From positions 992,001-1,056,000 of the forward strand of contig NZ_CP040788.1 of assembly GCF_021922985.1 (NCBI RefSeq): 64,000 nucleotides of DNA, written 5' to 3'. The stretch is from Clavibacter michiganensis subsp. tessellarius. Its GTDB lineage: Bacteria; Actinomycetota; Actinomycetes; Actinomycetales; Microbacteriaceae. The stretch's first letter is position 1; each line of letters starts with the position of its first letter. The notes under the pieces are model-generated. The model made no database searches. It was not told where the DNA came from and worked only from the letters and a program-made list of their open reading frames with translations. Made by a program: the position numbers and the translations under genes. Positions 4,610-27,070 of this stretch are shown here, piece after piece.

Positions 4610-4675
4610 GGAGCGCTCCCCTCGCCGCACGCGGTGGATCGCCCGATCGGCGCCGCAGAATACCACGCATCTGAG

Positions 4676-4685
4676 CACCTAGGTG
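4676..4685. promoter_or_regulatory. Ten-base perfect palindrome CACCTAGGTG
   Basis: Short perfect palindrome in the 412-bp gap between the MerR gene and the lipid operon. It may be an operator half-pair or chance; listed because it lies in the only control region available to the cluster. Confidence 0.25.
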
Positions 4686-4827
4686 AACCTTGCCCCCGGG
4701 CGGAAGATCGTTCTCCGCGTTCTGCGCGTTTAGCTCCCTCCATGACGGCATCCGAAGGCTCGGTCGGAGCGGACCGCGGTCCAAAGGAATGGCCGATCCG
4801 CCGGGTATCTCGCGGGATATTCGCCAG

Positions 4828-4861
4828 CGGGCCCGCGCCCCCGCCCGGGGGTGCGGGCCCG
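4828..4861. terminator. Strong 15-bp hairpin, possible terminator of the MerR transcript
   Basis: Bases 4828-4842 pair with 4847-4861 (one G-U pair) around a GCCC loop. There is no T-run on either side, so it is an atypical terminator at best; it could also act as a boundary or attenuator upstream of the lipid operon promoter. Confidence 0.45.
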
Positions 4862-4906
4862 GTCCGCGATAACGAGGACTTCATCCGCCGCGGAGTCGGG
4901 ATGCTT

Positions 4907-4942
4907 GAACACTTGACAACGTCTAGTGCCGAACGCTTGTCT
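4907..4942 (+). promoter_or_regulatory. Candidate promoter of the lipid-synthase operon with direct repeats
   Basis: A consensus -35 TTGACA (4913-4918) is followed 18 bases later by a weak -10, TTGTCT (4937-4942). The -35 lies within GAACACTTGAC (4907-4917), imperfectly repeated as GAACGCTTGTC (4931-4941), 24 bp start to start. Direct repeats over a promoter with a poor -10 suggest activator binding. The acyl-carrier-protein start is at 5022. The rest of 4610-5021 shows nothing else except the palindrome at 4676 and the hairpin at 4828. Confidence 0.4.
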
Positions 4943-5021
4943 ACGACTCGGAGTTGGTCGACGACCGACCGGACGGGCGCCGCAGGCTGCCCGTCGCCAT
5001 CAGGCGCAGAGGGAGCGGCAC

Positions 5022-5270
5022 ATGGTCGATGCAACATCGGTGGAATCCTGGCTCGTCGAGAAGATCGCCGCGCGCACCGGGATGGAGAGGGCGGAGGTGG
5101 ATCCGGAGAGGTACTTCGACGAATTCGAGCTCGATTCCACGGAGGCGCTCGTGCTCGCCGGGGAATTGGAGGAATGGCTCGGATTCGACGTCGCCCCGAC
5201 GGCCCTGTGGTACTTCCCGACCGTCGAGAAGCTCGCCGAGCACATCGCGGCCGAGTCGGCCTCGCGGTAG
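5022..5270 (+). CDS. Discrete acyl carrier protein
   Basis: An 82-residue carrier protein that would hold a growing or starter acyl chain on a phosphopantetheine arm. The attachment motif is FELDSTEAL, with Ser39 as the modified residue; the helical ends VSESW-type N-terminus and FPTVEKLAEHIA C-terminus match the PP-binding fold, and length is normal. The ATG at 5022 has GAGGGAG about 10 nt upstream; an in-frame start at 4926 would add a non-homologous leader. First gene of the cluster, 19 bp ahead of the thioesterase. It would need activation by the phosphopantetheinyl transferase at 24522. It could carry starter, product or a coupled substrate; the sequence does not say which. Confidence 0.88.
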   Translation: MVDATSVESWLVEKIAARTGMERAEVDPERYFDEFELDSTEALVLAGELEEWLGFDVAPTALWYFPTVEKLAEHIAAESASR

Positions 5271-5289
5271 ACGAGCGACGTCCCGCGTC

Positions 5290-6054
5290 ATGACCTCCTC
5301 GAAGCGCCGCGTCCACGTGATCCACCCCGGCACGCTGCCCGCGTCGGTCTACGCGGGGCTCACGGCGTCCGCCCCGGACGTCGCGCTCTCCGTCAGCGAC
5401 CTGGGCGCGCATCGGGAGTACGTCCACGCGGGACTGGACGCCCGCATCCCGACGCCGACGATGGACTCCCTGACGCGGCACATCCTGGCGGAGGACGGGG
5501 ACGCCGTCCGCCGGGCCGAGCTGCTCGTCGGCTGGTCGTTCGGCGGCCTCGTCGCCCTGGCCCTGCGGCGGGAGGCCGACCTGCGGGTCCACGTGGGCCT
5601 GCTCGACACCGTCGCCCCCGTCGTCGACGTGGACGGGACCCGGTCGCTCACCCGGCGGTGGCTCGCCGACTACCTGGGCGCGCGCGCCGGACGTCCCCTG
5701 GCGCTGCCGGCCGCCGTCCCCGGCGAGGACCCCCTCCCGCCGCTGCACGCCGCGGCCGTGGCCGCGGGGGCCGTCGCCCCGGACGTGACGATCGGCGGGT
5801 TCCGCGCCCTCGTCCGCGCCTACACGGGCGGCCTGGAGCGCAACGTCCGGATCACGGGGTCGAGCGACGTCCCGGACGTGACCGACGCCACCCTCGTGAA
5901 GCCGGAGGTCGGCCTCCTGCCCGACACCGCGTCCAACGGCTGGGACGCCGTCGCCCCCGACCTCCCCGTCGTCGCCTGCCCGGGCGACCACTACTCGATG
6001 CTCACGCTCGGCTCCGCCTCCCCGGCGGTGCTCGCGCTCATCCCGCACCGCTGA
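5290..6054 (+). CDS. Polyketide-type thioesterase, alpha/beta-hydrolase fold
   Basis: A 254-residue stand-alone thioesterase. The nucleophile elbow is GWSFGG with Ser83; the acid is probably Asp106 in GLLDTVAP and the base His234 in PGDHYSML, the arrangement of type II and offloading thioesterases of PKS and NRPS systems. It could release the finished acyl chain by hydrolysis or clear stalled carrier proteins. It sits between the discrete ACP (19 bp upstream) and the PfaA-type synthase (78 bp downstream). Well-studied marine PUFA synthases have no such companion as far as I know, so this is a distinguishing feature. No good Shine-Dalgarno sequence precedes the ATG, so expression may depend on coupling to the ACP gene. 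Confidence 0.82.
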   Translation: MTSSKRRVHVIHPGTLPASVYAGLTASAPDVALSVSDLGAHREYVHAGLDARIPTPTMDSLTRHILAEDGDAVRRAELLVGWSFGGLVALALRREADLRVHVGLLDTVAPVVDVDGTRSLTRRWLADYLGARAGRPLALPAAVPGEDPLPPLHAAAVAAGAVAPDVTIGGFRALVRAYTGGLERNVRITGSSDVPDVTDATLVKPEVGLLPDTASNGWDAVAPDLPVVACPGDHYSMLTLGSASPAVLALIPHR

Positions 6055-6132
6055 CCGCCTTCCCCCACCCCTCGAGGGCCGCTCGCCGCCGACCGCGCGA
6101 GAGGCCCCTCCTCGCAGACCCTGGAGATCGAC

Positions 6133-9100
6133 ATGGACGACACCGCAGACGCAGGAACCCTCGACCGACGACTCGCCCGCACGCCCCTGGCGGTCGTCGG
6201 CCTCTCCAGCCTGTTCCCGGGCTCGACGGATGTCGAGGGCTTCTGGAACGGCATCGTGGACCGGGTCGACGCGATCCGGGACATCCCCGACTGGCACTGG
6301 GACGTGGAGGACCACTACTCCCCCGACCGGACCGCCCCCGACAAGACCTACGCGCGGCGCGGCGGCTTCATCGACCCGGTGCCGTTCCACCCCATCGACT
6401 TCGGCATCCCGCCGTCCCAGCTCGACGTGACCGACGTGCTCCAGCTGCTCAGCCTCGTGGTGACCCGGGACCTGCTCCGCGACGCGGGGACGGACGCCGG
6501 CGACTGGTACGACGCCGCGCGGACGGGCGTCGTCCTCGGCGTCACCGGCGCGAACCAGCTGACGCAGCCCCTGTCGGCGCGGCTCCAGACGCCCGCGATC
6601 CTGCGCGCCGCGCGGTCCGTCGGGCTGAGCGAGGCGGACGCCGCGGAGATCGCGCGGCGCTTCCGCGCCGGGTTCGCGCCGTGGGAGGAGAACTCCTTCC
6701 CCGGCATGCTCGGCAACGTCGTCGCGGGGCGGGTGGCCAACCGCTTCGACCTCGGCGGGATGAACATGACCGTCGACGCGGCGTGCGCGAGCTCGCTCGG
6801 CGCCCTGCGCGCGGCGGCGGCGGAGCTCGTCGACCACCGGGCGGACACCATGATCACCGGCGGCTGCGACGCGGAGAACACGGTCTTCATGTACCTGTGC
6901 TTCTCGAAGACGCCGGCCTTCAGCCCGTCGGGCGACGTGCGGCCCTTCGACGCGTCGTCGGACGGCACGCTCATCGGCGAGGGCATCGGCATGCTCGCCC
7001 TCCGGCGCCTCGAGGACGCGGAGCGGGACGGGAACCGCATCTACTCGGTGATCCGCGGGATCGGCTCGGCCAGCGACGGCCGCTACAAGTCCATCTACGC
7101 CCCGCGCGCCAGCGGCCAGCAGCTGGCGCTCCGCCGGGCGTACGAGGACGCGGACTGCGCGCCCACCTCGGTCTCCGTGGTCGAGGCGCACGGGACGGGG
7201 ACGGCCGTCGGCGACGCGACGGAGCTCCGCGCGCTCAGCGAGGTGCTCGCCGAGGCGGGCGCCGCCGAGGGGTCCATCGCGATCGGGTCGGTGAAGTCGC
7301 AGATCGGCCACACCAAGGCCGCGGCGGGCGCCGCCGGGCTCATCAAGCTGTCCCTCGCGCTGCAGCACCGCATCGTGCCGCCGACCATCAAGGTCGAGAC
7401 GCCCGCGAGCGCGTTCGCCGGCAGCCCCCTGCACGTCAGCACGCAGCCGCGCCCCTGGTTCCGGAGCCCCGACCAGCCCGTGCGCCGCGCGGGGCTGTCG
7501 GCCTTCGGCTTCGGCGGCACGAACTTCCACGTGGTCCTCGAGGAGCACCCGGCCTCGCGGGCGATCGGCAACGCCCTCGACCGCAGCGTCGTGCGGCTGT
7601 GGGCCGCGCCCACGCCCGCCGAGCTCGCGGCGGCCCTCGAGGACGGCGCGGCGCCCGTGGCGTCGGGCACGGCGATCGACCCGGGCTGGCCGCGGATCGC
7701 GCTGGTCGCGCCGACCACGGACGCGGCCGACGCGATGCGGTCCGGCGCCGCCCGCCGCATCCGCGCCGAGTCCGACGCCGCGTGGTCCGACCCGCGGGGA
7801 TCCCACTACCGCCCGGCCGCCCTCGACGGCGCCCGCGTGGGCCTCCTGTTCTCCGGGCAGGGCAGCCAGCACGTCGACGCCGCGCTCTCCGCCGTGCTCC
7901 GCGAGCCCGTCCTCATGGACGCGCTGGAGGACGCGTACGCGACCGCGGGCCTGGAGGGGCTGGCGGCGATCGCCTATCCCCCGCCCGCGACCGACGACGC
8001 CGGCCGGTCCGCCCGCACGGCCCGGCTCCGGGAGACGCAGGACGCGCAGCCCGCCATCGGCGCGCTGTCCGCCGCGCACCACCGCCTGCTCACCGGGCTC
8101 GGGCTCGCGCCGTCGGCGTTCGCCGGCCACAGCTTCGGCGAGCTGACGGCTCTGTGGGCAGCCGGATCGCTCGACGACGCGTCCTTCCTGCGCCTCGCGC
8201 GCCTCCGCGGCGAGGCGATGGCCGCGGCCGCGAGCGGGCACGGCGACGCCGGGGCGATGGTCGCGGTCCTCGCGGATCGCGCGACCGCGGACGCGCTCGT
8301 CGCGGCGACCGAGGGACTCGTCCTCTGCAACGTCAACAGCCCCCGGCAGCACGTCGTCGGCGGATCGCGCGAGGCCGTCGACCGGGTCGTGCGCCTCGCG
8401 GAGGAGCGGGGCGTGCGCGTGGTCGAGCTGCCGGTCGCGGCGGCGTTCCACACGCCGGCGGTCGCCGGCGCGGTCGACGCGTTCGGCGAGGCGGTCCGGG
8501 CTGCCGGGGTCGGGGCCCCCACCCGCGGTTCGGTGCACGCGAACACGCCGGGCGGCTCGTACGGATCCGACGTCGCCGCCAACGCGGAGCTCCTCGCCGC
8601 GCAGCTCGCGCACCCGGTGGACTTCGAGCGCGGCGTCCGGCGGATGCACGAGGACGGCGTCCGCGTCTTCGTCGAGTGCGGCCCGGGAAACGTGCTCGCG
8701 CGCCTGGTCACCGAGATCCTGGGCGACGCCGACGACGTGCTCGTCGTCGCCGCCGACGCCGGGGATCCGGCGACCTCGCAGCACGTCCTGGCCACGACGA
8801 TCGCCCGGCTCGCCGTCGCCGGCGCCCTCGAGCGCTGGCAGAGCGCCGGCCTGCGGGAGCGGCCCGTCCCGCGCGAGGGCACGGGGCCCGCGGTGATGCT
8901 CACGGGCGTCAACCACGTGTCCGCCGCCCGCGCGGACGGGTACGAGCGCCTCCTGGCCGAGCCGTACGAGCTCACGTCCCGCGCGCCCCGCTCCCCCGAC
9001 GTCGCCGCGTCGGCCGCCCTCGCGGTCGCCGCGTCGAGCGCCGTCGCCGTCCCCCCGCACGCCGCTCCCCCCACGCCGGCGCCCGCCGGCCGCGTCGCGG

Positions 9101-12100
9101 ACGAGGTCCCCCTCCCCGTCCGCGCCCCCATCCCGATCACCACCCACCGCACACGAAGCGAGCCGGAGAACATGAGCGTCATCCACACCACCCCCAGTCG
9201 TCACCTCGACCTGGCGCGGGAGCAGCTGAACGTCCACGCCGACTTCCTGTCCGGCCAGCAGGACGTGAGCCGCGCCCTGCTGTCCATGCTCGAGGGCGAC
9301 CACGACCACGTCCCCGTGGACGGGATCCGCGAGATCGTCGCCCAGTGCATCGCCGTGGGCGACGCCCACGTGCAGGTGAACCGCATGATCTCCGCCGGCG
9401 GCGCCGACGAGCCCGCCGACGGGTCGAGCCGCGGAGCGCGCTCCGGGCGGGCCCGCATCGGAGCCCCGGCTGACGGCGGCGGCAGCGGCGGGAGCGGCGG
9501 GAGCCGACCGGCACGGCACGAGGGCGCGCTCGCCGAGCGCCCGGCGCCCCGGTCGATCGCGCTCCGGGACGACCACGTGCGCGCGGGGTCCGAGATGACC
9601 CGCATGGGCGCCCCGACCGCGACGGAGGCCGTCGTGCACGCGGCGGCCGCGAACCCGGGAGCGCACGCCGCCGCATCGGCGACGGCCCCGCCCGCCGTCC
9701 AGGAGGACGCGACCCCGGCCGCCCCCGACGCGTCGCCCGACGTGGTCGCCGACACCGCGGCCGCGGACGCTCCCGCGGCCCCCGCGGTGGACGTGGACAT
9801 GGAGGCGCTCGTCCGCGAGGTCGTCGCCGAGAAGACCGGCTACTCGGCCGACATCCTCGAGCTCGACATGGGCATCGAGGCCGACCTCGGCATCGACTCG
9901 ATCAAGCGCGTGGAGATCCTCGGCGCGATCGGCGAGCGCTTCCCCGGCCGCGCCCCGTTCTCGCCGGAGGAGGTCGCCGAGCTGCGCACGCTGGGCGACA
10001 TCGTGGACGCGCTCCGCACCCCGGGCTCCGGCACCAGCCGCGAGCGTCGCGCCGCCGCGGCGGCCGACGACGAGGAGGCGGCGCCAGGGATCCGCAGATC
10101 GGTCGTGCGATGGCGGCGGATCCCGGGGCCTGACCTCCCCGCGAGCCGTCCGCGGCGGCGGGTGGCGCTCGTCGACCTGGCCGACGCTCCGCTCACCGCG
10201 CCCCTGCGACGGGCGCTCGAGGGCGTGGGCCACGAGGTCCGCGTGACGACGCCCGACGACCTCGGCGACCTCGCCGGGGACATGGTCCTCGTGGCGGGCC
10301 CCGGCGGGGACGCCACCGGCGCGCTCGTGGCCGCGCTGATCGCGGTCCAGGCGTTCGTCCGCGCGCACGGCCCGCGCCCCGCCGACGACGAGGCGGCGCC
10401 CCGCCTCCTGGCCGTCGGCCTCCTCGACGGCCGGGACCCGGACTCCGCCGACGGGATCGCCGCCGCCGGCCTCGCGGGCCTCGTGCGGACGGCGCGCATC
10501 GAGCACCCGGGCATCCGGTCCCGCGCGGTGATGCTCGAGGACGGGGGCGGCCTCGACCCGGACGCCGCGGCGACCGCGCTCGTCGACGAGCTCGACGACG
10601 CGGCCGACGGCCTCGACACCGTCCGGTGGAGCGCGGGCGAGCGCTCCGCGGTCCGCGTCGAGCCCGACGACACCGCCGCCGCCGCCGCCGCCCAGGACGC
10701 CGACGCCGCCGTCCCCTCCGCGCGAGCCCGCTGGGACGACCTCGACGTCGACGACGCCGTGCTCGTCACGGGCGGCGCGCAGGGGATCACCGCGCTCTGC
10801 GTGCGGGAGCTCGCCGCCGCGAACCCCCGCCCCGCCTACGTGCTCGCCGGCCGCACCCCGTCCGCGGAACCGGCGTGGGCGACGGGCCTCGCCTCGCCCG
10901 CCGAGCTGCGCGACGCCGCGGCGACGCTCCTGCGCGACGCCGGGAAGCGCCCGACGCCCCGCGCCGTGGGAGCCCTCGCGGAGTCCGTCCTCGCGGGACG
11001 TCGCGTCGCGGAGCAGCTCGCCGCCCTGGAGCGGGCCGGCGTCCGCGCGCACTACGTCCGCGTCGACCTGACCGACGCGGACGCGACCCGCCAGGCGCTG
11101 GCGCCGTTCGCCGCGCGCATCACGGCCGTCGTGCACGGCGCGGGGGCCATCGCCGACAAGCTGATCGCGGACAAGGCGCCGGAGGACGCCCGCCGCGTGA
11201 TCGCCACCAAGCTGCGGAGCCTCGAGAACGTCCTCGCGGGCCTCGGCGGCTCGACCCGCCTCCGTCACGTCGTGCTCTTCTCGTCCGTCGCCGGGCTCTT
11301 CGGCAACCGGGGCCAGGGCGACTACGCCATGGCGAACACGGTCCTCGACCGGTGGGCCGAGGGGCTCGCCGCGCACCTGCCCGCCGCGCACGTCGTCTCG
11401 ATCGACTGGGGCGCGTGGGACGGCGGCATGGTCTCCGACGCGGTGCGGGCCCTGTTCCGCGCCCGCGGCTACGCGCTCGTCGCCCCCGGCACCGGCGCGC
11501 GGATGCTCGTCGAGCAGACCACCGCGCCGCACGTCGACCAGCGGCAGGTGCTCATCGGCCCCGCGGAGCCGCTCTCCGGGGATCCGGTCCTCGCCCGCCG
11601 CACCCGGTCCGCGCTGCTCCTCGACGGGCTGTTCGGCTCCGAGCTGGTGCGGGCGCACGCGCTCGACGGCACGAGGATCCTGCCCCTCGCCGCGGCCGCG
11701 TGCCTCCTCGCCGCCGCCGGCGGACGCCACACCGGGCGCCTCCCTGCCGAGCTCCGGGACGTCCGCGTCTCCGCGGGCGTCGGGGACGCGGACGCCGGCC
11801 CCTTCGTCGTGCTGCTGGAGGACGCGACGGCCGACGGCCCGGGCGACGCCCGGATCCACGCGGTGCTCGCCAGCGCGGGCGACGGTCCCGGCGGACGCGA
11901 CCGCCCGCGGTTCGCGGCGACCCTCGCCTCCGCCTCCCCCGCCCTCCCTGGCGGGACGCCCGCAGCGCCGCCGTCATCCACCTCCCCCGTGCGCCCCCTC
12001 GACCCCTACGCCTCGGGCCTGCTCTTCCACGCCGACGCGCTACAGGCCGTCACCGGCGTCCAGCGGGACGAGGACGCGGTCACCGTGCACGCGGTGAACC

Positions 12101-12459
12101 CCGCCGTCGCGCGCCCGCTCGCCACCGAGGCCGGCGCGATGGACGTGGTCGCGCTCGACGTGGCCATGCAGGCGGCCCTCGTGTCCGCCCACGAGGCGGG
12201 CGGCATGGTCGCCCTGCCCTCCGCCGTCGGATCGCTCCGGTGGACCGGGGGCACGGCGGCCGGCGACGCGCTGCGGATCCGGGCGACCGGCATCCGGGCC
12301 CTGGCCGACCGCACGCGCATGGACCTCGTCGTGACCGCGGTCCGCGCGGGTCGGGAGCACGTGGTCGCCACGCTGGACGACGTCGAGGTGACCCGCCGCC
12401 CGGCGGCCGTCACCGCCCCGAGCGCCGCCGACGCGCTCGTGACGGCGGGTGCGTCATGA
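6133..12459 (+). CDS. pfaA: PfaA-type iterative lipid synthase, KS-AT-ACP-KR-DH
   Basis: A 2108-residue megasynthase, the main chain-building subunit. Domains: ketoacyl synthase about 17-480 (Cys218 in DAACASS, His353 in EAHGTGT, His393 in GHTKAAA); acyltransferase about 565-880 (Ser667 in GHSFGE, His in AAFHTP); an Ala/Pro-rich linker and a helical segment 1014-1090; one ACP about 1220-1290 (Ser1256 in LGIDSIKRVEIL, the PUFA-synthase form of the motif); ketoreductase about 1340-1790 (TGGAQGI at 1546-1552, Ser1717/1718, Tyr1731); PKS-type dehydratase about 1820-2090 (His1842 in HALDGTRILP, Asp2009 and Gln2013). Same domain order as marine PfaA, but with one ACP instead of the usual five to nine. 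GGAG lies 6 nt before the ATG. The stop overlaps the next gene (ATGA). Confidence 0.93.
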   Translation: MDDTADAGTLDRRLARTPLAVVGLSSLFPGSTDVEGFWNGIVDRVDAIRDIPDWHWDVEDHYSPDRTAPDKTYARRGGFIDPVPFHPIDFGIPPSQLDVTDVLQLLSLVVTRDLLRDAGTDAGDWYDAARTGVVLGVTGANQLTQPLSARLQTPAILRAARSVGLSEADAAEIARRFRAGFAPWEENSFPGMLGNVVAGRVANRFDLGGMNMTVDAACASSLGALRAAAAELVDHRADTMITGGCDAENTVFMYLCFSKTPAFSPSGDVRPFDASSDGTLIGEGIGMLALRRLEDAERDGNRIYSVIRGIGSASDGRYKSIYAPRASGQQLALRRAYEDADCAPTSVSVVEAHGTGTAVGDATELRALSEVLAEAGAAEGSIAIGSVKSQIGHTKAAAGAAGLIKLSLALQHRIVPPTIKVETPASAFAGSPLHVSTQPRPWFRSPDQPVRRAGLSAFGFGGTNFHVVLEEHPASRAIGNALDRSVVRLWAAPTPAELAAALEDGAAPVASGTAIDPGWPRIALVAPTTDAADAMRSGAARRIRAESDAAWSDPRGSHYRPAALDGARVGLLFSGQGSQHVDAALSAVLREPVLMDALEDAYATAGLEGLAAIAYPPPATDDAGRSARTARLRETQDAQPAIGALSAAHHRLLTGLGLAPSAFAGHSFGELTALWAAGSLDDASFLRLARLRGEAMAAAASGHGDAGAMVAVLADRATADALVAATEGLVLCNVNSPRQHVVGGSREAVDRVVRLAEERGVRVVELPVAAAFHTPAVAGAVDAFGEAVRAAGVGAPTRGSVHANTPGGSYGSDVAANAELLAAQLAHPVDFERGVRRMHEDGVRVFVECGPGNVLARLVTEILGDADDVLVVAADAGDPATSQHVLATTIARLAVAGALERWQSAGLRERPVPREGTGPAVMLTGVNHVSAARADGYERLLAEPYELTSRAPRSPDVAASAALAVAASSAVAVPPHAAPPTPAPAGRVADEVPLPVRAPIPITTHRTRSEPENMSVIHTTPSRHLDLAREQLNVHADFLSGQQDVSRALLSMLEGDHDHVPVDGIREIVAQCIAVGDAHVQVNRMISAGGADEPADGSSRGARSGRARIGAPADGGGSGGSGGSRPARHEGALAERPAPRSIALRDDHVRAGSEMTRMGAPTATEAVVHAAAANPGAHAAASATAPPAVQEDATPAAPDASPDVVADTAAADAPAAPAVDVDMEALVREVVAEKTGYSADILELDMGIEADLGIDSIKRVEILGAIGERFPGRAPFSPEEVAELRTLGDIVDALRTPGSGTSRERRAAAAADDEEAAPGIRRSVVRWRRIPGPDLPASRPRRRVALVDLADAPLTAPLRRALEGVGHEVRVTTPDDLGDLAGDMVLVAGPGGDATGALVAALIAVQAFVRAHGPRPADDEAAPRLLAVGLLDGRDPDSADGIAAAGLAGLVRTARIEHPGIRSRAVMLEDGGGLDPDAAATALVDELDDAADGLDTVRWSAGERSAVRVEPDDTAAAAAAQDADAAVPSARARWDDLDVDDAVLVTGGAQGITALCVRELAAANPRPAYVLAGRTPSAEPAWATGLASPAELRDAAATLLRDAGKRPTPRAVGALAESVLAGRRVAEQLAALERAGVRAHYVRVDLTDADATRQALAPFAARITAVVHGAGAIADKLIADKAPEDARRVIATKLRSLENVLAGLGGSTRLRHVVLFSSVAGLFGNRGQGDYAMANTVLDRWAEGLAAHLPAAHVVSIDWGAWDGGMVSDAVRALFRARGYALVAPGTGARMLVEQTTAPHVDQRQVLIGPAEPLSGDPVLARRTRSALLLDGLFGSELVRAHALDGTRILPLAAAACLLAAAGGRHTGRLPAELRDVRVSAGVGDADAGPFVVLLEDATADGPGDARIHAVLASAGDGPGGRDRPRFAATLASASPALPGGTPAAPPSSTSPVRPLDPYASGLLFHADALQAVTGVQRDEDAVTVHAVNPAVARPLATEAGAMDVVALDVAMQAALVSAHEAGGMVALPSAVGSLRWTGGTAAGDALRIRATGIRALADRTRMDLVVTAVRAGREHVVATLDDVEVTRRPAAVTAPSAADALVTAGAS

Positions 12460-19412: not shown

Positions 19413-21018
19413 CCCATGGGGCTGGAGCGGACCGGGGAGGCCCGCGACGTCGGCCGACGCCCTGGAGCGGGCGATCCACGACGTGGCACGACCGGTGTTC
19501 GTCGTGGAGACGCCCGAGGGGGTCGCGGTCGCGACCGACGGCGCCCTCAGCGCGACGCCGCGGCACCGGCTGCTCGCCGCGGCGGGGCCCGTCGACCCGG
19601 GAGGCCTCGGATCGGCGGCGTTCCGCGAAGACCACGGCGTCCGCGCCGCGGCGATGGCCGGGGCCATGGCGGGCGGCATCGCGTCCGTCGAGCTCGTGTC
19701 GGCCCTCGCCCGGGCCGGGCACCTCGCCTCCTACGGCGCGGCCGGGCAGCTCCCGGAGCGCATCGACGAGGCCGTGCGGCGGATCCGCGAGGCCGCGCCC
19801 GGCCGCCCCTTCGCGGTCAACGTCATCCACAGCCCGAGCGAGGCCGCGCTCGAGGAGGGCGTGGTCGACGTCCTGCTGCACCGCGACGTCCGCCTGGTCG
19901 AGGCGTCCGCGTACCTCGAGCTCACCGAGCCCCTCGTGCGGTACCGCCTCACCGGCGCGCATCGCGACGGTCAGGGGCGCGTTCGCGGGCGCAACCGCGT
20001 GATCGCCAAGGTGTCGCGGCCGGAGACCGCGCGCCTGTTCCTCGCGCCCGCGCCGGAGGCCCTCGTGCGCCGCCTGCGCGACCGCGGCGCGATCACCGAG
20101 GAGGAGGCGGCCCTGGCGCCGTCCCTCCCGATGGCCGACGACATCACGGTGGAGGCGGACTCCGGCGGGCACACCGACCGGCGCCCCCTGCTGCCGCTGC
20201 TCTCGAGCATCCTCGTCCTCCGCGACCGGCTCGCCCCGGGCCTCGGCACCACGCCCCGGGTGGGCGCCGCGGGAGGGCTGGGGACGCCGCACGCCATCGC
20301 CGCGGCGTTCGCGATGGGCGCCGAGTACGTGGTGACCGGATCCGTGAACCAGTCCTGCGTCGAGTCGGGCACGAGCGACGCGGCGCGGTCGATGCTCGTC
20401 GCCGCCGGGATCGCGGACTTCGCGATGGCGCCGGCCGCCGACATGTTCGAGCTCGGGGTCGAGCTGCAGGTGCTGCGCAAGGGCACCATGTTCCCCATGC
20501 GGGCGGCCCGCCTCTCCGCCCTCTACCGCGCGCACGACTCCCTCGACGACCTCGGCGAGGACGACCGCGCGTGGCTCGAGCGCACGGTCCTCCGGGCGCC
20601 GGTCGAGGCCGTCTGGGAGAGCTGCGTGGAGTACTTCACGCGCCGCGACCCGGATCAGCTGCTCCGCGCCCGGGACCACCCGAAGCGCCGCATGGCCCTC
20701 GTCTTCCGGTGGTACCTGGGCATGGCGTCCCGCTGGGCCGCCGTGGGGGACGCCGAGCGCGCCGCCGACTACCAGATCTGGGCGGGCCCCGCCCTCGGGG
20801 CGTTCAACGACTGGGTGGCGGGCACGGCCCTCGCGCGGCCGGAGGAGCGGCGGGTCGCGCTCGTGACGGACGTGCTCCTCGGCGGCGCGGCGGTCATGAT
20901 GCGCAAGAGCATCCTCACCGCGGGCGGCATCCGCTCGGGACCGGTGGATCCGCAGCGCCTCCTCGACGCGCACGCCGCGGCCCACGCGGCCGCGACGACG
21001 GGCGGGTCCCGGGCATGA
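19405..21018 (+). CDS. pfaD: PfaD-type trans-acting enoyl reductase
   Basis: A 537-residue FMN-dependent enoyl reductase of the nitropropane-dioxygenase-like TIM-barrel family, which reduces the enoyl group on the PfaA carrier in selected cycles. Recognisable PfaD features are GAMAGGIASVELV near residue 95, the phosphate-binding GAAGGLGTPHA, the EYVVTGSVNQ region and the C-terminal helical part containing RWYLGMASRWA. Length is typical. The ATG overlaps the end of the preceding synthase gene by 8 nt and is preceded by a strong AGGAGGAG at 19393-19400. Its stop overlaps the next gene by 4 nt. With the two synthases it completes the reductive set needed to make saturated or partly unsaturated chains. 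Confidence 0.92.
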   Translation: MTDPWGWSGPGRPATSADALERAIHDVARPVFVVETPEGVAVATDGALSATPRHRLLAAAGPVDPGGLGSAAFREDHGVRAAAMAGAMAGGIASVELVSALARAGHLASYGAAGQLPERIDEAVRRIREAAPGRPFAVNVIHSPSEAALEEGVVDVLLHRDVRLVEASAYLELTEPLVRYRLTGAHRDGQGRVRGRNRVIAKVSRPETARLFLAPAPEALVRRLRDRGAITEEEAALAPSLPMADDITVEADSGGHTDRRPLLPLLSSILVLRDRLAPGLGTTPRVGAAGGLGTPHAIAAAFAMGAEYVVTGSVNQSCVESGTSDAARSMLVAAGIADFAMAPAADMFELGVELQVLRKGTMFPMRAARLSALYRAHDSLDDLGEDDRAWLERTVLRAPVEAVWESCVEYFTRRDPDQLLRARDHPKRRMALVFRWYLGMASRWAAVGDAERAADYQIWAGPALGAFNDWVAGTALARPEERRVALVTDVLLGGAAVMMRKSILTAGGIRSGPVDPQRLLDAHAAAHAAATTGGSRA

Positions 21019-22727
21019 CCGCCGTGACCGTCGCCGACGTCCCGGCCGTCGCCCCGGTCCCCACCGGAGCCCCCGCGGACGCCGCCGACCACGACCTGCG
21101 CTGGCTCGGCGATCCCTTCGCGCCCGACAACCCCGCCGGCTTCGCGCAGGCGGTCGGGCGGGCGCGCCGCGGCGAGCGCCCGACGGCGCTCCTGGAGCGC
21201 GCGCGGGCCGAGGACCTCCACCTCCTCTACACGCCGCGGGCCTGGGGCGGCACCCTCGACGACCCGGTGCGCGCCGGTCGCACCGCCCGCACGCTGGTCG
21301 CCCGGGACGGCGACGTCATGACGAACCTCCTCATGTCGCTCACCCCCGTGCTCGTCACCGGGCTCCTCGGCAGCGGGGCCCAGCGGGCATCCGCGGTCGA
21401 CGCGGTCACCCGCGGCGCGGACGTCGGCTACGCCCTCTCGGAGCGCGAGCACGGCTCCGACCTGCTCCGGATGGACACGACGGCGCGCACCGACGGCTCC
21501 CGGGTGGTCCTCGACGGCCGCAAGTGGTGGGTCGGCCGGGCGCCCACGGCGGAGCGCTTCGTCGTCGTCGCCCGGAGCGGCGGACGCGGACCCACGGCGT
21601 TCTCCGCCTACGACGTCCCCGCCGACGCCCCGGGCCTCTCGGTGGACGCGCCGCACGGGACGGCGGGCTTCCCCGGCACCGCGTTCGCGGACGTGGGCCT
21701 CTCCGGGGTCGCGATCCCGTCGACGGCGCTCCTCGGCGCGGAGGGATCCGCGATGGAGGCGATCCTCCGGTCCCAGTCCGTCGTGCGGGTCCTCAGCCTC
21801 CCCGCGTCGCTCGCGGGGATGGACGCCGACCTGATGCTCCTCGGCCGCATCGCCGAGGAGCGCCGCGGGGGTCGCGCGCTCCGGGACGACCACGTCTTCC
21901 TGGCCGACGCGGGCCGCATCGCCGCCTGGGCGCTCGCCGCGGAGGCCGTCGCCGAGGGCGCCCTGCGCGAGCTCCTCACCGATCCCGCGTCCGCCGTGCT
22001 CCGCTCCGCGTGCGCCAAGCACGTCGTGTCCCGCTGCGTGCAGCAGGTGCACGACCTCGTCGGCGACGCCCTGTCGACGCGGGGGGTCGACGGCGCCGGG
22101 CCGTGGGGCATGCACGAGCAGGTCGCCCGGAACGCGCGGATGATCCGCGTCATCGACGGGAGCCCGATGTCGACCCTGCGCGCCGTCGCGGGGTCGCTCC
22201 CCCGGATCGCCGCCGAGGAGGACGACGACCGGTCCGGGGAGGCGCACCCGCCGCCCGGTCGCGCGCCGGACGGGCTCGACCCGGCCCGCCTCGCCGTCGC
22301 GCCCCCGCGCCGCGACCGGGCGGTCGCGGGCCTCCGGCTGGACGCGGACGCGCTCCGCGCCTCGCCCGACGGCGGCTTCGGATCCGACGTCGAGCGCCTC
22401 CTCGACGCGCTCGACCGGTCGGACGCCCGCATCCGCTCGAGCGCGGCCTCCTCCCGGGAGTCCCGCTCCGCGCACCTCGTCGCCGAGATGCGGCGCCGGT
22501 CGTTCCTCTCGAGCGCCGCGAGCGCGATCTGCGCCCGGCACGGCGGCCTCGTCGGCCCCCTCGCCGCACGGCTCGGCGTGGACCACGTCCCCGTCCTCAC
22601 CTCGGCGCTGCTCGACGGCGCGGGGCACGGGCACGACGGCGGCCGCGTCGACGACGAGGTCGACCGGGGACGCGGGCTCCTCGACGCCCTCCGCGGCGAC
22701 CTGCGGGGACGGCGGGACGATGACTGA
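21015..22727 (+). CDS. Acyl-CoA dehydrogenase-like flavoprotein 1, C-terminally extended
   Basis: A 570-residue member of the acyl-CoA dehydrogenase superfamily. The FAD/substrate region shows ALSEREHGSDLLRMD and GRKWWVG; the late motif RNARMIRVIDGSPMS corresponds to the segment that in MCAD contains the catalytic Glu (EGT), here Asp-Gly-Ser. The dehydrogenase fold ends near residue 400; the remaining 170 residues (acidic linker, then a helical region ending LDALRGDL) have no clear match. No electron-transfer flavoprotein genes are nearby. It may put a double bond into, or otherwise oxidise, a carrier-bound acyl chain made by the synthase. Overlaps pfaD by 4 nt (ATGA) and the next gene by 8 nt. 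Confidence 0.8.
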   Translation: MTAVTVADVPAVAPVPTGAPADAADHDLRWLGDPFAPDNPAGFAQAVGRARRGERPTALLERARAEDLHLLYTPRAWGGTLDDPVRAGRTARTLVARDGDVMTNLLMSLTPVLVTGLLGSGAQRASAVDAVTRGADVGYALSEREHGSDLLRMDTTARTDGSRVVLDGRKWWVGRAPTAERFVVVARSGGRGPTAFSAYDVPADAPGLSVDAPHGTAGFPGTAFADVGLSGVAIPSTALLGAEGSAMEAILRSQSVVRVLSLPASLAGMDADLMLLGRIAEERRGGRALRDDHVFLADAGRIAAWALAAEAVAEGALRELLTDPASAVLRSACAKHVVSRCVQQVHDLVGDALSTRGVDGAGPWGMHEQVARNARMIRVIDGSPMSTLRAVAGSLPRIAAEEDDDRSGEAHPPPGRAPDGLDPARLAVAPPRRDRAVAGLRLDADALRASPDGGFGSDVERLLDALDRSDARIRSSAASSRESRSAHLVAEMRRRSFLSSAASAICARHGGLVGPLAARLGVDHVPVLTSALLDGAGHGHDGGRVDDEVDRGRGLLDALRGDLRGRRDDD

Positions 22728-24531
22728 GCCGGGCACGGGCCTGCACGCTCCTCGCGGCTCCCGCGGCCGCCCCCGCCGCCTCGCGCTCGGCGCCTCCTTC
22801 GAGGCGGCGATGGGCGACGCCTGGGGCTCCGGCCCCTTCGGCTACGCCGCCAGCCGGCGACGTGACGAGGACGAGCGCGAGGCGAGCGACGAGTACGGGG
22901 CGCTCCGTCGGATGGGCTTCCTCGAGTGGACCATCCCGGCGAGCGCCGGCGGCCTCGCGGTCGACGTCGACGAGACGTTCCTCCTCACCCGGCTGCTGTC
23001 CCGGCGCGACCAGACGCTCGCCGTCACGGCCATGGCCACGTCGGTGGGCTACCTCCCCGTCTGGGTCGACGGCACCGATGCGCAGCGCCGGGAGCTCGGC
23101 GCGCGCATCCTCGCCGGCGACCGCGTCGCCTTCGCGCTGTCCGAAGAGGCCCACGGGAGCGACGTGCTGGGCAACGAGACGGTCGCCGTGCGGGACGGCG
23201 CGGACTGGCGCGTCTCCGGACGCAAGGAGGGCATCGGCAACGCGCCCCTCGCGCGCTTCCTCACCTGCGTCGCGCGCACCGGGGCGCGGCCGGGCCCGGG
23301 GAGCCTCTCCCTCCTGCTCGTCGACCGGACGACGGCGGGCGCGGATCCGGAGACGGTGCGCTCGGGGCGGACCTGGCGCCTGACCGGGCTCCGCGGCTTC
23401 GCGCTCGGCGACGTCTCCCTGCGCGACGCGCACGTCCCCGCATCCGGTCTGATCGGGCAGGAGGGCCACGGGCTCGAGACCGTCCTCCGCTCCGGGCAGG
23501 TCGCCCGCGCGCTCGTCACCGCGCTGCCCCTGGGCGGCGCCGACACCTCGCTCCGGCTCGCCCTCGACTTCGCCAGCTGGCGCCGGATCTTCGGCAGGAC
23601 CGTCGCCGAGAGCCCCTACAGCCGGCGGCAGCTCGCGGAGTGCTTCGCGCAGCTCCTCTTCGCCGAGAGCGCGAACACGACGGCGATCCGCGGCATCCAG
23701 GCGTTCCCGGGGCACGCGTCGATCCTGAGCAGCGCCGTGAAGTACCGCATCCCGCGCCAGCTCGCGGCGCTGCAGGACGTCCTCACCGACGTCCTCGGCG
23801 CGCGGCACTTCGACCGCGACGCCCCGCGGGCGTGGCCGCACGCGAAGGCCGTGCGCGACGGCCGGGTGGCGCACTTCGCGGACGGCAACGGGGTCGTGAA
23901 CCTCAAGGTCGTCGCCGCGGCCCTCGACCGCGTCCTCCCCGCCGACGTCCGGATGGCCGACGTCGCCGATCCCGGGGACGCGCTCGCCCGGGTCGCCGAC
24001 CTCGACGCGGAGCTCCCGGGCTTCCGCCCCGAGCGCCAGACGGTCGCGCCCCAGGGGGCGGACGTCGTGACCGTCGCCCTGGCCGGCGCCGCCCGGCGGC
24101 TGGCCGCCGACGCGGCGGAGCCCGGACCCGCCGGCGACCTGGCCCGGCGCGTCACGGCCGACCTCGACGCGCTCTGGGAGCTCGGCCGCGCGGCCCGTCT
24201 GCGCCACGCCGCCCGGGCGCGGGCGGAGGGCGCGGCGTACCTGTCGTCCGTGCATCCGCTCCGCACGGCCGAGCTCGGCTGCGTCGTCGTCATGGCCGGA
24301 TGCGCCGCCGCGGCCTGGGCCGGGAACCCGCGCGCCCTCGGGGACGAGGAGGACACCCTCGCCGTGTTCGCGCTCGGCCTGGCCCTCCAGGTCGGCACCG
24401 CCGACGACGTCGACGACGGGATCGTCGAGCGGGTCATGCGCGTGGCCGAGCGCCTCCACGCGGAGGGGCGCCTGTTCTCGCACCTGCCGGTGCGGCTGGC
24501 CCCGGAGCGGGAGGCGCCGCCGTGGCGCTAG
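22720..24531 (+). CDS. Acyl-CoA dehydrogenase-like flavoprotein 2
   Basis: A 603-residue homologue of the same superfamily, about 200 residues longer than usual. Visible features: FLEWTIPASAGGL near the N-terminus, the flavin-site motif ALSEEAHGSDVLGNE, GRKEGIGNAPLARF, a GLRGFALGDV segment, and HFADGNGVVNLKVV, the equivalent of the late (E/D)GT motif with Asp. The C-terminal third is alanine-rich and helical. It differs substantially from its neighbour, so the pair is probably an old duplication or two recruited enzymes, possibly a heterodimer. ATG overlaps the preceding stop by 8 nt; the stop lies inside the start of the phosphopantetheinyl transferase gene. Substrate unknown; action on a carrier-bound product of the cluster is inferred from the operon. 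Confidence 0.8.
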   Translation: MTEPGTGLHAPRGSRGRPRRLALGASFEAAMGDAWGSGPFGYAASRRRDEDEREASDEYGALRRMGFLEWTIPASAGGLAVDVDETFLLTRLLSRRDQTLAVTAMATSVGYLPVWVDGTDAQRRELGARILAGDRVAFALSEEAHGSDVLGNETVAVRDGADWRVSGRKEGIGNAPLARFLTCVARTGARPGPGSLSLLLVDRTTAGADPETVRSGRTWRLTGLRGFALGDVSLRDAHVPASGLIGQEGHGLETVLRSGQVARALVTALPLGGADTSLRLALDFASWRRIFGRTVAESPYSRRQLAECFAQLLFAESANTTAIRGIQAFPGHASILSSAVKYRIPRQLAALQDVLTDVLGARHFDRDAPRAWPHAKAVRDGRVAHFADGNGVVNLKVVAAALDRVLPADVRMADVADPGDALARVADLDAELPGFRPERQTVAPQGADVVTVALAGAARRLAADAAEPGPAGDLARRVTADLDALWELGRAARLRHAARARAEGAAYLSSVHPLRTAELGCVVVMAGCAAAAWAGNPRALGDEEDTLAVFALGLALQVGTADDVDDGIVERVMRVAERLHAEGRLFSHLPVRLAPEREAPPWR

Positions 24532-25280
24532 CGCGGAACGCGCTCCGGATCGCCGACGCCGCGACCGCGGCCGCGCTCGCCGCCCGACCGCTGGCCTCCG
24601 CCGCTGACCGGGCGCGCCACGACCGCATGCGCTCCGCACGCGCGCGCACGGGCTTCGCCGCGACCCGCGCGCTCGCGGCCGACATGCTGCGGGAGCGCGG
24701 CATCCCGGAGCCGCAGGCGATCCGCGCGGATCCCCGCGGCCGGCCGTTCCTCCCGCCGTCGTGCGGCCTCTCCATCAGCATCTCCCACACGGATACCTGG
24801 GTCGCGGTCGCCCTCGCCGCGGACGACCGCTGCGGCGTCGACGTGCAGTCGCCGCTGGATCCCCGGGCCTTCACCCGCGCCGTCCTCCAGCGCTACCTGC
24901 CGCCGGGCTGGGCCGACGCCCTCGCGGACGGCGGGGACGCGACCGCCCCGGCGACCCTCACCCGCATGTGGGCGACCGTCGAGGCCGCGCTCAAGTGGCG
25001 CGGGACCGGCTTCGCGCACGGCCTCGACGTGCTCCGCTGGGAGGCCGACGGGATCCGGACCCTCGTCCACGACGACGAGGCGGGGCGCTCCGCCCGCGTC
25101 GACGCGCGGCGCCTGCCCGACGGGTCGGTGCTGGCCCACGCGTTCGACCCGCCCGCCGACGCCGTCGACGTCCACGTCGCCGTCCACGTCGCCATCGACT
25201 CCCCCTCCCCCGGCGCGCGCCACGACTCGCGGTGCGCACCGACCCCCGCCCCGACCCCCGCAGAAGGAAGACCCACATGA
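24522..25280 (+). CDS. 4'-phosphopantetheinyl transferase, Sfp type
   Basis: A 252-residue enzyme that would transfer phosphopantetheine from CoA to the ACP serines at 5022 and in the PfaA-type protein; it fills the PfaE role. Motifs: CGVDVQ at 104-109 with the magnesium-binding Asp107, and WATVEAALKW at 150-159 with Glu154 and Lys159. GLSISISHT is the central strand region. The GTG start at 24522 follows GGAGCGGGAGG and gives a 10-nt overlap with the dehydrogenase stop. The last 40 residues (Val/His-alternating, then Pro-rich) are beyond the family core. Its stop overlaps the next start (ATGA). Confidence 0.9.
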   Translation: MALARNALRIADAATAAALAARPLASAADRARHDRMRSARARTGFAATRALAADMLRERGIPEPQAIRADPRGRPFLPPSCGLSISISHTDTWVAVALAADDRCGVDVQSPLDPRAFTRAVLQRYLPPGWADALADGGDATAPATLTRMWATVEAALKWRGTGFAHGLDVLRWEADGIRTLVHDDEAGRSARVDARRLPDGSVLAHAFDPPADAVDVHVAVHVAIDSPSPGARHDSRCAPTPAPTPAEGRPT

Positions 25281-26566
25281 CCACGCACCTCCCCCGGCTC
25301 GCGATCATCGGCGCCGGCGTCTCCGGCATCGCCGCCGCCCACGACGCGCGCGACCGCGCCGACGTCGTCGTCTTCGAGGCCGCGGACCGGGCCGGCGGCC
25401 ACGCGGACTCCCACGACGTCGCCCCCGGCATCGGGCTCGACACGGGGTTCGTCGTCCTCAACCGGCCGAACTACCCCCGCTTCTCCGCGTTCCTCGACGA
25501 GCTCGGCGTGGCGACCATCCCCCACGTCGGCGAGTTCACGTTCTTCGACGACTCGACCGGCCGCGTCTACGGATCCCGGGAGCTCGAGTCCGACACCGAG
25601 CCGGCCGATCCCGAGCTCGCGGAGATCTGGCGGGAGTCCGCGCGCTTCGGCGTCGAGGGCCCGCGGGACTTCATCCGCGGCCGGGCCGACGTGCCCCTCC
25701 GCGAGTACCTCGACGCGAACGGGTACTCGCGCGCGTTCCAGGAGGGCTACATCGTCCGGCTGAGCACCGCGGTCTGGTCGGTGCCGTACGACCTGATCTG
25801 GGACATGCCCGCCGCGACCGTGATCGCGTACTTCGTCGCGCACGGCAACAGCTCGCTGGGCGGCCGGGGCGTCGGATGGGAGACGGTCGCCGGCGGCTCC
25901 CGGCGCTACGTCGACGCGGCCCTCGCCGCCGCCGGCGCGGACGTCCGCCTCTCCACCCCCGTCGCGAGCGTCGCCGAGGACGAGGACGGCGTCACCGTCA
26001 CGACGGCGGACGGCCGCGTCGAGCGGTTCGACGCCGCCGTCGTCGCGACGCACGGCGACACGGCGCGCGACCTGCTCGCCTCGCCCACCGACGGACAGCG
26101 CCGGGCGCTGGCCGGCATCCGCTACTCGGAGAGCCGCGTCGTGCTCCACACCGACGTCCGCGTCCTCCCCGCCGACCGGTCGCGGTGGGCGAGCTGGAAC
26201 TACGGCGACGCGGAGGGCCCCGACGGCCGCGTGCCCTACGTCGCGTGGTACCTGAACAAGCTGCAGGGGTTCGAGTCGACGACCGACTACATCGTGACCC
26301 TCGACCACGTCGGCGAGATCGACCCCGCCCTCGTCCTCGCCGACGACCGTGTCCGCCACCCGATCATCGACTTCGAGCTCCGGGCGCTGCAGCGGGAGAT
26401 CCACCGGCTCACGGTCAGCCCGCGCGTGGCCCTCGCGGGCTCCTACTTCCACTCCTCCGACCTCGGCTGGGACGTCATCGGCTCCCACGAGGCCGGATAC
26501 GCGTCGGGCGTGCGCGCCGTCCGGGCGCTCGTCCCCGTGCGGGAGCCGAGCACCGCGGCCGGGTAG
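25277..26566 (+). CDS. FAD-dependent oxidoreductase, COG2907-like
   Basis: A 429-residue flavoprotein with an N-terminal dinucleotide fold (GAGVSG at 12-17, then FEAADRAGGH) and an amine-oxidase-like arrangement: LDTGFVVLNRPNYPRF, a central VWSVPYDLIWDMPA segment, and a C-terminal GSYFHSSDLGWDVIGS region closing over FAD. Proteins of this COG2907 group are commonly encoded beside cyclopropane-fatty-acid synthase-like enzymes and DUF1365 proteins and are thought to act on unsaturated lipids. Here it is the last gene of the lipid-synthase operon, so modification or desaturation of the product is a reasonable inference. ATG overlaps the preceding stop by 4 nt and follows AGAAGGAAG. A terminator hairpin follows 12 bp after its stop. 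Confidence 0.82.
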   Translation: MTTHLPRLAIIGAGVSGIAAAHDARDRADVVVFEAADRAGGHADSHDVAPGIGLDTGFVVLNRPNYPRFSAFLDELGVATIPHVGEFTFFDDSTGRVYGSRELESDTEPADPELAEIWRESARFGVEGPRDFIRGRADVPLREYLDANGYSRAFQEGYIVRLSTAVWSVPYDLIWDMPAATVIAYFVAHGNSSLGGRGVGWETVAGGSRRYVDAALAAAGADVRLSTPVASVAEDEDGVTVTTADGRVERFDAAVVATHGDTARDLLASPTDGQRRALAGIRYSESRVVLHTDVRVLPADRSRWASWNYGDAEGPDGRVPYVAWYLNKLQGFESTTDYIVTLDHVGEIDPALVLADDRVRHPIIDFELRALQREIHRLTVSPRVALAGSYFHSSDLGWDVIGSHEAGYASGVRAVRALVPVREPSTAAG

Positions 26567-26578
26567 CGGCGGCACGGC

Positions 26579-26617
26579 GGAGGGGCGCAGCGGCTGATCC
26601 CGCCCCTGCGCCCCTCC
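26579..26617. terminator. Bidirectional terminator hairpin
   Basis: GGAGGGGCGCAG (26579-26590) pairs perfectly with 26606-26617 around a 15-base loop. It lies between the end of the plus-strand lipid operon and the end of the convergent minus-strand exporter cassette. Confidence 0.7.
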
Positions 26618-26658
26618 TCGTCGTCACCCGCCGTCCGCGACGGACCGGCGACGACGCG

Positions 26659-27060: not shown

Positions 27061-27070
27061 GCTGTTCCTC

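What the first reader, a model, noticed from the sequence alone, without database searches (positions are those of the whole stretch)
5022..26566. Complete Pfa-type (PUFA-synthase-like) iterative lipid synthase operon in a Microbacteriaceae-like actinobacterium
Seen: KS-AT-ACP-KR-DH, KS-CLF-AT-DH-DH, PfaD-type reductase and Sfp-type transferase, all catalytic motifs intact, plus ACP, thioesterase and three flavoproteins. Known: PfaA-E is sufficient for polyunsaturated fatty acids in marine bacteria, and variants make other secondary lipids. Inference: this makes a specialised polyene or partly unsaturated lipid, not a housekeeping fatty acid. The accessory set (two long dehydrogenases, COG2907 oxidoreductase, thioesterase, discrete ACP) does not match any Pfa cluster I know.
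Basis: partly seen in the sequence, partly recalled or inferred. Interest (0 to 1): 0.9.

Follow-up and report, generated by a model that had tools for sequence, protein, structure and literature searches.

The report
Conserved actinobacterial polyunsaturated-lipid synthase cluster
A plant-associated type of bacterium carries, on an inserted stretch of DNA, a full set of genes for building and probably exporting an unusual, highly unsaturated fatty lipid; the same set recurs in many Streptomyces and related bacteria, and its product is still to be found.

Summary
Window 5022-26566 is one operon: ACP, thioesterase, PfaA (KS-AT-ACP-KR), fused PfaBC (KS-CLF-AT-DH-DH), PfaD, two C-terminally extended acyl-CoA-dehydrogenase-type proteins (ACADs), Sfp-type PPTase, FAD oxidoreductase. 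PfaA and PfaD pass NCBIfam cut-offs; a KS tree places both KSs with Pfa KSs, apart from most other actinomycete KSs sampled; both PfaBC DH domains keep the residues of marine PfaC. The accessory set is not unique: it is a conserved unit, with MerR, DUF3291-like and MFS genes, in Clavibacter (PfaD in 3 of 18 genomes), Streptomyces and other actinomycetes, and on plasmids. In a fresh draw 18 of 18 oxidoreductase orthologues lay beside Pfa genes. Here it sits on a ~28-kb insertion. Best reading: a mobile secondary-lipid pathway in which a Pfa synthase makes a partly cis-unsaturated chain that dedicated flavoenzymes desaturate further, probably to a conjugated polyene acid, released by the thioesterase and exported. 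The chemistry is inference. It is a variant of a known kind. Eight searches of an open-access library listed no paper on the set or a product; their lists were capped.

The parts
3962..4609 (+). MerR-family regulator; orthologues accompany the cluster
   Evidence: PF13411 53.5 bits; 70-71% id in two Clavibacter clusters, 30-36% in seven Streptomyces ones; 9 of 14 relatives
5022..5270 (+). discrete acyl carrier protein (LDS phosphopantetheine site)
   Evidence: PF00550 45.9 bits (scanned from 5040); called in 13 of 14 relatives; ATG at 5022
5290..6054 (+). alpha/beta-hydrolase-type thioesterase (GWSFGG ... GDHYSML)
   Evidence: below Pfam cut-off itself, orthologue PF00975 46.1 bits; called in 11 of 14 relatives, both motifs kept in those 11
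6133..12459 (+). PfaA: KS-AT-ACP(x1)-KR, C-terminal DH by motif only
   Evidence: Pfam; TIGR02813 over cut-off; KS tree
12456..19412 (+). PfaBC fusion: KS-CLF-AT-DH-DH
   Evidence: Pfam KS x2 and FabA-like x2; best PDB hit 6riw 'ORF10' 367 bits, next 212; active-site alignment with Photobacterium, Shewanella and Colwellia PfaC
19405..21018 (+). PfaD-type enoyl reductase
   Evidence: TIGR02814 580.6 bits, cut-off 449.25; tree
21015..22727 (+). ACAD1: acyl-CoA-dehydrogenase-type flavoprotein with C-terminal helical extension
22720..24531 (+). ACAD2: paralogous acyl-CoA-dehydrogenase-type flavoprotein with C-terminal extension
   Evidence: PF02771/PF02770/PF00441 over cut-offs; profile hits to PDB ACADs; 31% id to ACAD1 over 316 aa; not folded
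24522..25280 (+). Sfp-type phosphopantetheinyl transferase (PfaE-like)
   Evidence: PF17837 and PF01648 just over cut-off; motif check
25277..26566 (+). FAD oxidoreductase of the amine-oxidase superfamily (COG2907-like by recall); putative acyl desaturase
   Evidence: PF01593 83 bits; AF2 model pLDDT 86, Foldseek best LkcE TM 0.79-0.81; present in 14 of 14 relatives
26659..27060 (-). DUF3291/ABM-like small protein, part of the conserved unit
   Evidence: under cut-off here (PF11695 20.7/23.5, PF03992 22.8/23.1), PF11695 24.4 in S. diastatochromogenes; RefSeq names it DUF3291 on two plasmids
27071..28465 (-). MFS exporter of the unit
   Evidence: PF07690 189.5 bits; 82-87% id in two Clavibacter clusters, 45-48% in six Streptomyces ones; 'DHA2 family efflux' on the S. 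globosus plasmid
1485..29497 (.). ~28-kb insertion that carries the cluster
   Evidence: congener G011 has 153 bp between the matching flanks; no BLASTN match of 150 bp or more to it in the 19-20 kb taken from any of five congeners at this locus

Best explanation
A mobile actinobacterial secondary-lipid pathway. PfaA, PfaBC and PfaD iteratively condense malonyl units on PfaA's ACP; KR, the two FabA-like DH domains and PfaD reduce, dehydrate and isomerise, giving a long chain with some cis double bonds (shown: the domains and their residues; inferred: the chemistry). The chain, probably handed to the discrete ACP, is oxidised further by ACAD1/ACAD2 (alpha,beta-dehydrogenation of an acyl-ACP) and by the FAD oxidoreductase (a distal or conjugating desaturation, as UfaD does on phospholipid chains), giving a highly unsaturated, probably conjugated polyenoic acid (inferred). 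The thioesterase releases it, the MFS protein exports it, MerR controls expression (inferred from annotation and linkage). The unit spreads on plasmids and chromosomal insertions (shown by position only).
Against: No product is known. Nearest solved fold of the oxidoreductase is LkcE, an amide oxidase, and UfaD's sequence was not held for direct comparison. The ACAD catalytic Glu position carries Asp (15 of 15 ACAD1, 14 of 15 ACAD2), so dehydrogenase activity is not certain; the ACADs could also act on a starter unit or in the reductive direction. The Catenulispora version is flanked by an aminotransferase and a thioester-reductase-like gene, so end products may differ in the family. Saccharopolyspora loci with an ACAD show only one in the stretch held.
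Confidence: 0.5

Rival explanations
1. It makes an ordinary membrane PUFA (EPA/arachidonate type) as in marine bacteria; the ACADs and oxidoreductase are peripheral.
For: PfaC-type KS and DH domains are close to those of EPA/DHA producers; KS-CLF-AT-DH-DH is also the order of Type D pfaBC in Psychroflexus (PMC3098273, section 6 read) and, up to its AGPAT end, of myxobacterial Pfa3 (PMC8436480, passages).
Against: ACADs and oxidoreductase are in 14 of 14 covered relatives, and none of the other 65 of 80 fetched PfaD loci has an ACAD hit in the flanks held, at most 10 kb and often cut; thioesterase and efflux pump suggest release and export; one in-cis ACP instead of the four to nine given for PUFA synthases (PMC5067506, passages), though ACP number is said there to change yield, not profile; PfaD is patchy, 3 of 18 congeners.
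Confidence: 0.15
2. The two ACADs act on the starter or an early intermediate (making an unsaturated starter on the discrete ACP), and the Pfa synthase then extends it.
For: The discrete ACP comes first in the operon; AnaB and PigA, which by their names and by recall oxidise carrier-bound prolyl groups, are among the fold matches of ACAD1.
Against: Both ACADs carry a C-terminal extension, and the ACAD1 profile runs through ACAD9 (profile 38-570), kin by recall to very-long-chain ACADs; I saw no acyl-ACP ligase or other starter gene recurring in the unit.
Confidence: 0.2
3. The oxidoreductase is an LkcE-like amide/amine oxidase and the product is a nitrogen-containing lipid.
For: LkcE is the best solved match by sequence (150 bits, next 55) and by fold (TM 0.79-0.81); one relative (Catenulispora) has an aminotransferase and a thioester-reductase-like gene next door.
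Against: LkcE's E64, whose mutants were inactive, falls on Val/Ile in all 14 aligned members, and R326 (R326L inactive, R326Q active) on an aromatic residue in the consensus and in the window (read from the HMMER alignment); the window operon has no nitrogen-introducing gene.
Confidence: 0.1

Closest known systems
Marine PUFA synthases pfaABCDE (Shewanella, Photobacterium, Colwellia)
   Same: PfaA KS-AT-ACP-KR, PfaC KS-CLF-DH-DH with the same active-site residues, PfaD, Sfp-type PPTase; KS phylogeny
   Different: PfaB AT fused into PfaC, one in-cis ACP, thioesterase, discrete ACP, two ACADs, FAD oxidoreductase, MFS and MerR
Myxobacterial Pfa1-3 (Aetherobacter, Minicystis)
   Same: Fused KS-CLF-AT-DH-DH' protein (PMC8436480, passages)
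   Different: Those carry a C-terminal AGPAT domain and count pfaD as pfa1; 'acyl-CoA dehydrogenase' does not occur in that paper's main text
Secondary lipid synthase Types D and H of Shulse and Allen 2011 (PMC3098273, sections 6 and 7 read)
   Same: Fused pfaBC; Type H in Saccharopolyspora erythraea and Agrobacterium vitis, product unknown
   Different: Those have a split pfaA; the window's PfaA is one ORF (my gene caller did split it in two relatives). 'Acyl-CoA dehydrogenase' and 'thioesterase' do not occur in the main text. S. erythraea has an oxidoreductase homologue (P0128, 52% id), so Type H may be a relative; not tested
UfaD fatty-acyl desaturase (Rhodobacter furan fatty acids)
   Same: NAD/FAD-binding, phytoene-dehydrogenase-like flavoprotein acting on acyl chains (PMC7380195, passages)
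   Different: No CMAS or DUF1365 gene in the window operon; UfaD's sequence was not compared
LkcE amide oxidase/macrocyclase (lankacidin)
   Same: Closest solved sequence and fold
   Different: E64 and R326 absent

Membership tests
Pfa-type secondary lipid synthase | PfaA over the curated cut-off | tested here: met
   TIGR02813 1270.6 vs 1010.1 bits
Pfa-type secondary lipid synthase | PfaD over the curated cut-off | tested here: met
   TIGR02814 580.6 vs 449.25
Pfa-type secondary lipid synthase | KS-CLF with FabA-like DH-DH, residues kept | tested here: met
   PF00109 x2, PF02801, PF07977 x2; KS Cys-His-His and DH residues aligned with three marine PfaC proteins
Pfa-type secondary lipid synthase | KS domains group with Pfa KSs, not with modular PKS | tested here: met
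   128-row tree, SH-aLRT only; enediyne KSs not sampled; other KSs came from three genomes
Pfa-type secondary lipid synthase | PfaB-type acyltransferase domain | tested here: inconclusive
   pfaB_fam 31.5 vs 144.3 bits, no Pfam AT call, GYSLG motif conserved
Canonical PUFA synthase | four or more tandem ACPs in PfaA | tested here: not met
   one PP-binding domain; one LGIDSI site in the two other Clavibacter PfaAs, one to three in nine further relatives
Canonical PUFA synthase | PfaB as a separate protein | tested here: not met
   the AT region lies inside the single PfaBC ORF
Canonical PUFA synthase | EPA, DHA or ARA as product | not testable with these tools
   needs lipid analysis
Shulse and Allen Type H | fused pfaBC | tested here: met
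   single 2318-aa ORF
Shulse and Allen Type H | split pfaA | tested here: not met
   PfaA is one 2108-aa ORF
Acyl-CoA dehydrogenase superfamily (ACAD1, ACAD2) | ACAD domains and, for ACAD1, fold | tested here: met
   ACAD1 fold; ACAD2 was not folded
Acyl-CoA dehydrogenase superfamily (ACAD1, ACAD2) | catalytic carboxylate at the Y-E-G position | tested here: inconclusive
   Asp instead of Glu: D381 in 15 of 15 ACAD1, D388 in 14 of 15 ACAD2 with Glu in Kutzneria
UfaD-type acyl desaturase | sequence kinship to UfaD | not tested
   UfaD sequence not held; only indirect: 35-37% id paralogues beside CMAS and DUF1365 genes
LkcE-type amide oxidase/cyclase | E64 and R326 | tested here: not met
   Val/Ile at E64 in 14 of 14 aligned members; aromatic residue at R326 in consensus and window

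The most novel reading that the evidence does not exclude
A whole, widespread class of actinobacterial natural products, exported conjugated polyene fatty acids made by joining a PUFA synthase to an FAD desaturase and an acyl-ACP dehydrogenase pair, has so far no described member; Clavibacter acquired it by horizontal transfer, apparently at two chromosomal sites.
Probability: 0.35. Interest if true: 0.75.

Novelty: new variant of a known kind. Interest (0 to 1): 0.52.

Why it matters
PUFA-synthase-like clusters are widespread, but a 2026 paper says that only a handful of their products are identified (PMC13291983, abstract, section 5 and part of section 7 read). Here a unit of about a dozen genes recurs across six actinomycete families and on plasmids, one of them typed mobilizable, with the same tailoring flavoenzymes. 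That constancy makes a testable prediction: a Pfa chain desaturated beyond what the DH/isomerase domains can do. If right, it gives a route to secreted polyene lipids and links PUFA synthases with ACAD and FAD-desaturase chemistry.

Tried and rejected
MerR operator: a GACAA-N17-TTGTC dyad at window 4915 looked like an operator, but of the 16 other stitched clusters only Saccharopolyspora oryzae shows such a pattern, elsewhere; dropped.

ACAD2 as a phylum-wide marker: 3 of 396 genomes at E<=1e-60 (own plus two), but the two others show ACAD arrays without other cluster genes in the 4.4-4.7 kb held; not used as cluster counts.

ACAD1 protein search: six proteins at E<=1e-25 among 8000 scored candidates. 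The oxidoreductase profile found 622 at E<=1e-60, which may include paralogues, so it is no cluster count.

LkcE-type function: rejected on E64/R326. Housekeeping FAS: thought unlikely, the genome has a separate FabF-like KS.

VLCAD/ACAD9-like C-terminal domain: the sequence profile of ACAD1 runs through ACAD9, but the fold comparison spanned only residues 16-400, so the extension's fold is not settled. The oxidoreductase model was searched with Foldseek against PDB only.

Errors of my own: the 'acp' query was translated in the wrong frame (4954-5270), so its acp row is void; corrected. The ACAD regex missed most rows; one search replaces it. Row L021 was labelled 'ACADpair' but shows one ACAD gene in the stretch held; rows window and L087 got the label by hand (L087's genome has both). 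In some searches some CLF domains carry the label A_KS because they were found by that query.

Rows dropped: from the KS tree L001 (a copy of the window) and all rows of seven near-identical Nostoc loci (L053, L058, L061, L070-L072, L083); of 124 KS matches only 24 of the best-scoring loci were used besides the clusters' own.

Literature: ten searches; eight bear on the cluster, two on UfaD and LkcE. No listed title or abstract start describes this gene set; the lists were capped (for example 15 of 41, 15 of 23). Passages in PMC4210621 (Kutzneria albida kal28), PMC4675949 and PMC4035055 mention PfaA-like genes without a shown product. Subscription papers, preprints and MIBiG were not searchable.
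Full report
What is there. Gene calling and Pfam/NCBIfam scans confirm the reported operon, from an ATG at 5022 (discrete ACP) to 26566 (FAD oxidoreductase), all on the + strand. With the longest ORFs every gene from PfaA on overlaps the next by 4-10 nt; the codon model preferred later starts for PfaD (19495) and ACAD2 (22810). PfaA passes the TIGR02813 cut-off (1270.6 vs 1010.1) and PfaD the TIGR02814 cut-off (580.6 vs 449.25). The 2318-aa second synthase is KS-CLF-AT-DH-DH: Pfam calls two ketoacyl-synthase and two FabA-like stretches, its best PDB match is 6riw 'ORF10' at 367 bits, the next at 212 (I recall 6riw as a marine PfaC KS-CLF), and an alignment shows the KS Cys/His/His, a CLF without the Cys, an AT with GYSLG, and DH residues as in Photobacterium, Shewanella and Colwellia PfaC. 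Outside this cluster the genome has one PF00109 protein, FabF-like.

Weak points of the observation. PfaA has one in-cis ACP; in the relatives counted there are one to three LGIDSI sites, and a paper gives four to nine for PUFA synthases (PMC5067506, passages). The PfaA DH and the PfaBC AT are not called by Pfam and rest on motifs and, for the AT, a match under cut-off. The TE scores under Pfam cut-offs in the window but its Streptomyces orthologue passes, and GWSFGG and G[DN]HY[ST]ML occur in the window and in all 11 relatives with a called TE. The PPTase is just above cut-off and has Val where 7 of 11 relatives have Lys.

Which organism. PfaD occurs in 3 of 18 congeneric genomes, own included, and in 2 of 398 genomes drawn from the family, own included, both of this genus. 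One congener holds PfaD at the contig coordinates of Clavibacter sp. VKM Ac-2873, so the genus is Clavibacter; the species is not told.

The accessory set is a conserved unit. Nearest named PfaD relatives: Clavibacter (77%), then Streptomyces, Kutzneria, Actinopolyspora, Sphaerisporangium, Catenulispora and Saccharopolyspora (56-60%). I joined stretches for 16 loci. In the 14 with good coverage, PfaA, PfaBC, PfaD, two ACAD genes and the FAD oxidoreductase are in 14 of 14, the discrete ACP in 13, a TE in 11, a PPTase motif in 11, MerR in 9. The oxidoreductase follows the PPTase in 9 of 14 (Clavibacter, most Streptomyces) and precedes the ACP in 5 (Streptomyces sp. H27-S2, Actinopolyspora, Sphaerisporangium, Catenulispora, Kutzneria). 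My caller split PfaA in H27-S2 and Actinopolyspora, as in Type H; not examined. RefSeq annotation of plasmids in Streptomyces sp. NBC_00503 and S. globosus shows ACP, TE, two synthases, PfaD, two ACADs, FAD oxidoreductase, MerR, DUF3291 and MFS in one row; a third plasmid, CP042595.1, has PfaD, ACAD and oxidoreductase matches within about 21 kb.

Independent check. In 295 genomes of the genus of G019 (Streptomyces), 24 have the oxidoreductase at E<=1e-100, three of these matches with one TGA inside. I took 18 of the 24; the others were five genomes already met and G848. 18 of 18 lie beside Pfa genes: 14 with PfaC, PfaD and two ACAD genes, and 4 of the other layout with ACP, TE and PfaA, where the ACADs would lie beyond the stretch.

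Phylogeny. PfaD tree, 82 rows: the 17 rows with an ACAD lie on one side of a branch with SH-aLRT 100; none of the other 65 of 80 fetched loci has an ACAD hit in the flanks held, which are at most 10 kb and often cut by contig ends. KS tree, 128 rows, SH-aLRT only: the PfaC-type KS falls in a 46-row clade (100) with Shewanella, Photobacterium and Colwellia; the PfaA-type KS falls in a 26-row group (99) with KSs of other Pfa loci. Of the 25 other KSs (24 from three actinomycete genomes, plus FabF), 18 lie outside the wider Pfa part and seven inside, six of them probably from other Pfa-like clusters. One row that came in with the Pfa loci (L024) sits among the others.

Mobility. Against congener G011, window 1485-29497 is replaced by 153 bp, and the stretches of four other congeners at this locus do not match it either. 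G011 and VKM Ac-2873 share flanking gene sizes and order at another site; part of the latter's left flank (838 bases, 87%) matches G000 C1:2603776, far from the window at about 1.0 Mb. PfaD is 77% identical to the window's in both, while the peptidase gene beside the insertion is 90% and 89%. G+C is 77.3% in the operon and 74.3% in the window outside the insertion. This fits horizontal acquisition; it does not show the event.

Comparison with what is known. It belongs with Pfa-type secondary lipid synthases, fails two features of canonical PUFA synthases (tandem ACPs, separate PfaB), and resembles Types D and H of Shulse and Allen (PMC3098273, sections 6 and 7 read) in the fused pfaBC but not in a split pfaA. 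Eight paper searches listed no description of the gene set or a product; this does not cover subscription papers or MIBiG. Verdict: real, not unique, apparently uncharacterised; new variant of a known kind.

Noticed in passing
window 1931-3886: Left end of the insertion holds a C-terminal piece of an alpha/beta hydrolase (1931-2266, -), a MarR regulator (2353-2802, -) and a DUF2834 protein (3521-3886, +).
   Followed up: partly
L020:15219-18153: Catenulispora rubra cluster is followed by a polyketide-cyclase-like protein, a class III aminotransferase and a thioester-reductase-like protein: possibly an amine end product.
   Followed up: partly
L013:15421-18900; L016:18170-20301; L168:822-2641: Acyl-CoA-carboxylase-type genes lie next to the cluster in Actinopolyspora, Sphaerisporangium and on the S. 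globosus plasmid.
   Followed up: no
L104-L108: Second amine-oxidase paralogue in five actinomycete genomes, beside DUF1365 and/or CMAS genes: ufa-like operons by recall.
   Followed up: partly
L177-L184: Saccharopolyspora seems to hold at least three kinds of Pfa-like loci (7 of 22 genomes with PfaD at 1e-60); three of the eight fetched loci show one ACAD after pfaD.
   Followed up: no
L167:30225-41536: On the NBC_00503 plasmid the unit is followed by type II PKS genes with a further ACAD and a PPTase, and preceded by chorismate-related genes.
   Followed up: no
P0005, P0006: ACAD1 homologues are also listed for Clavibacter tessellarius (86% id but 375 aa, 64% of the query) and Myceligenerans indicum (50% id), the latter outside the genera sampled.
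   Followed up: no
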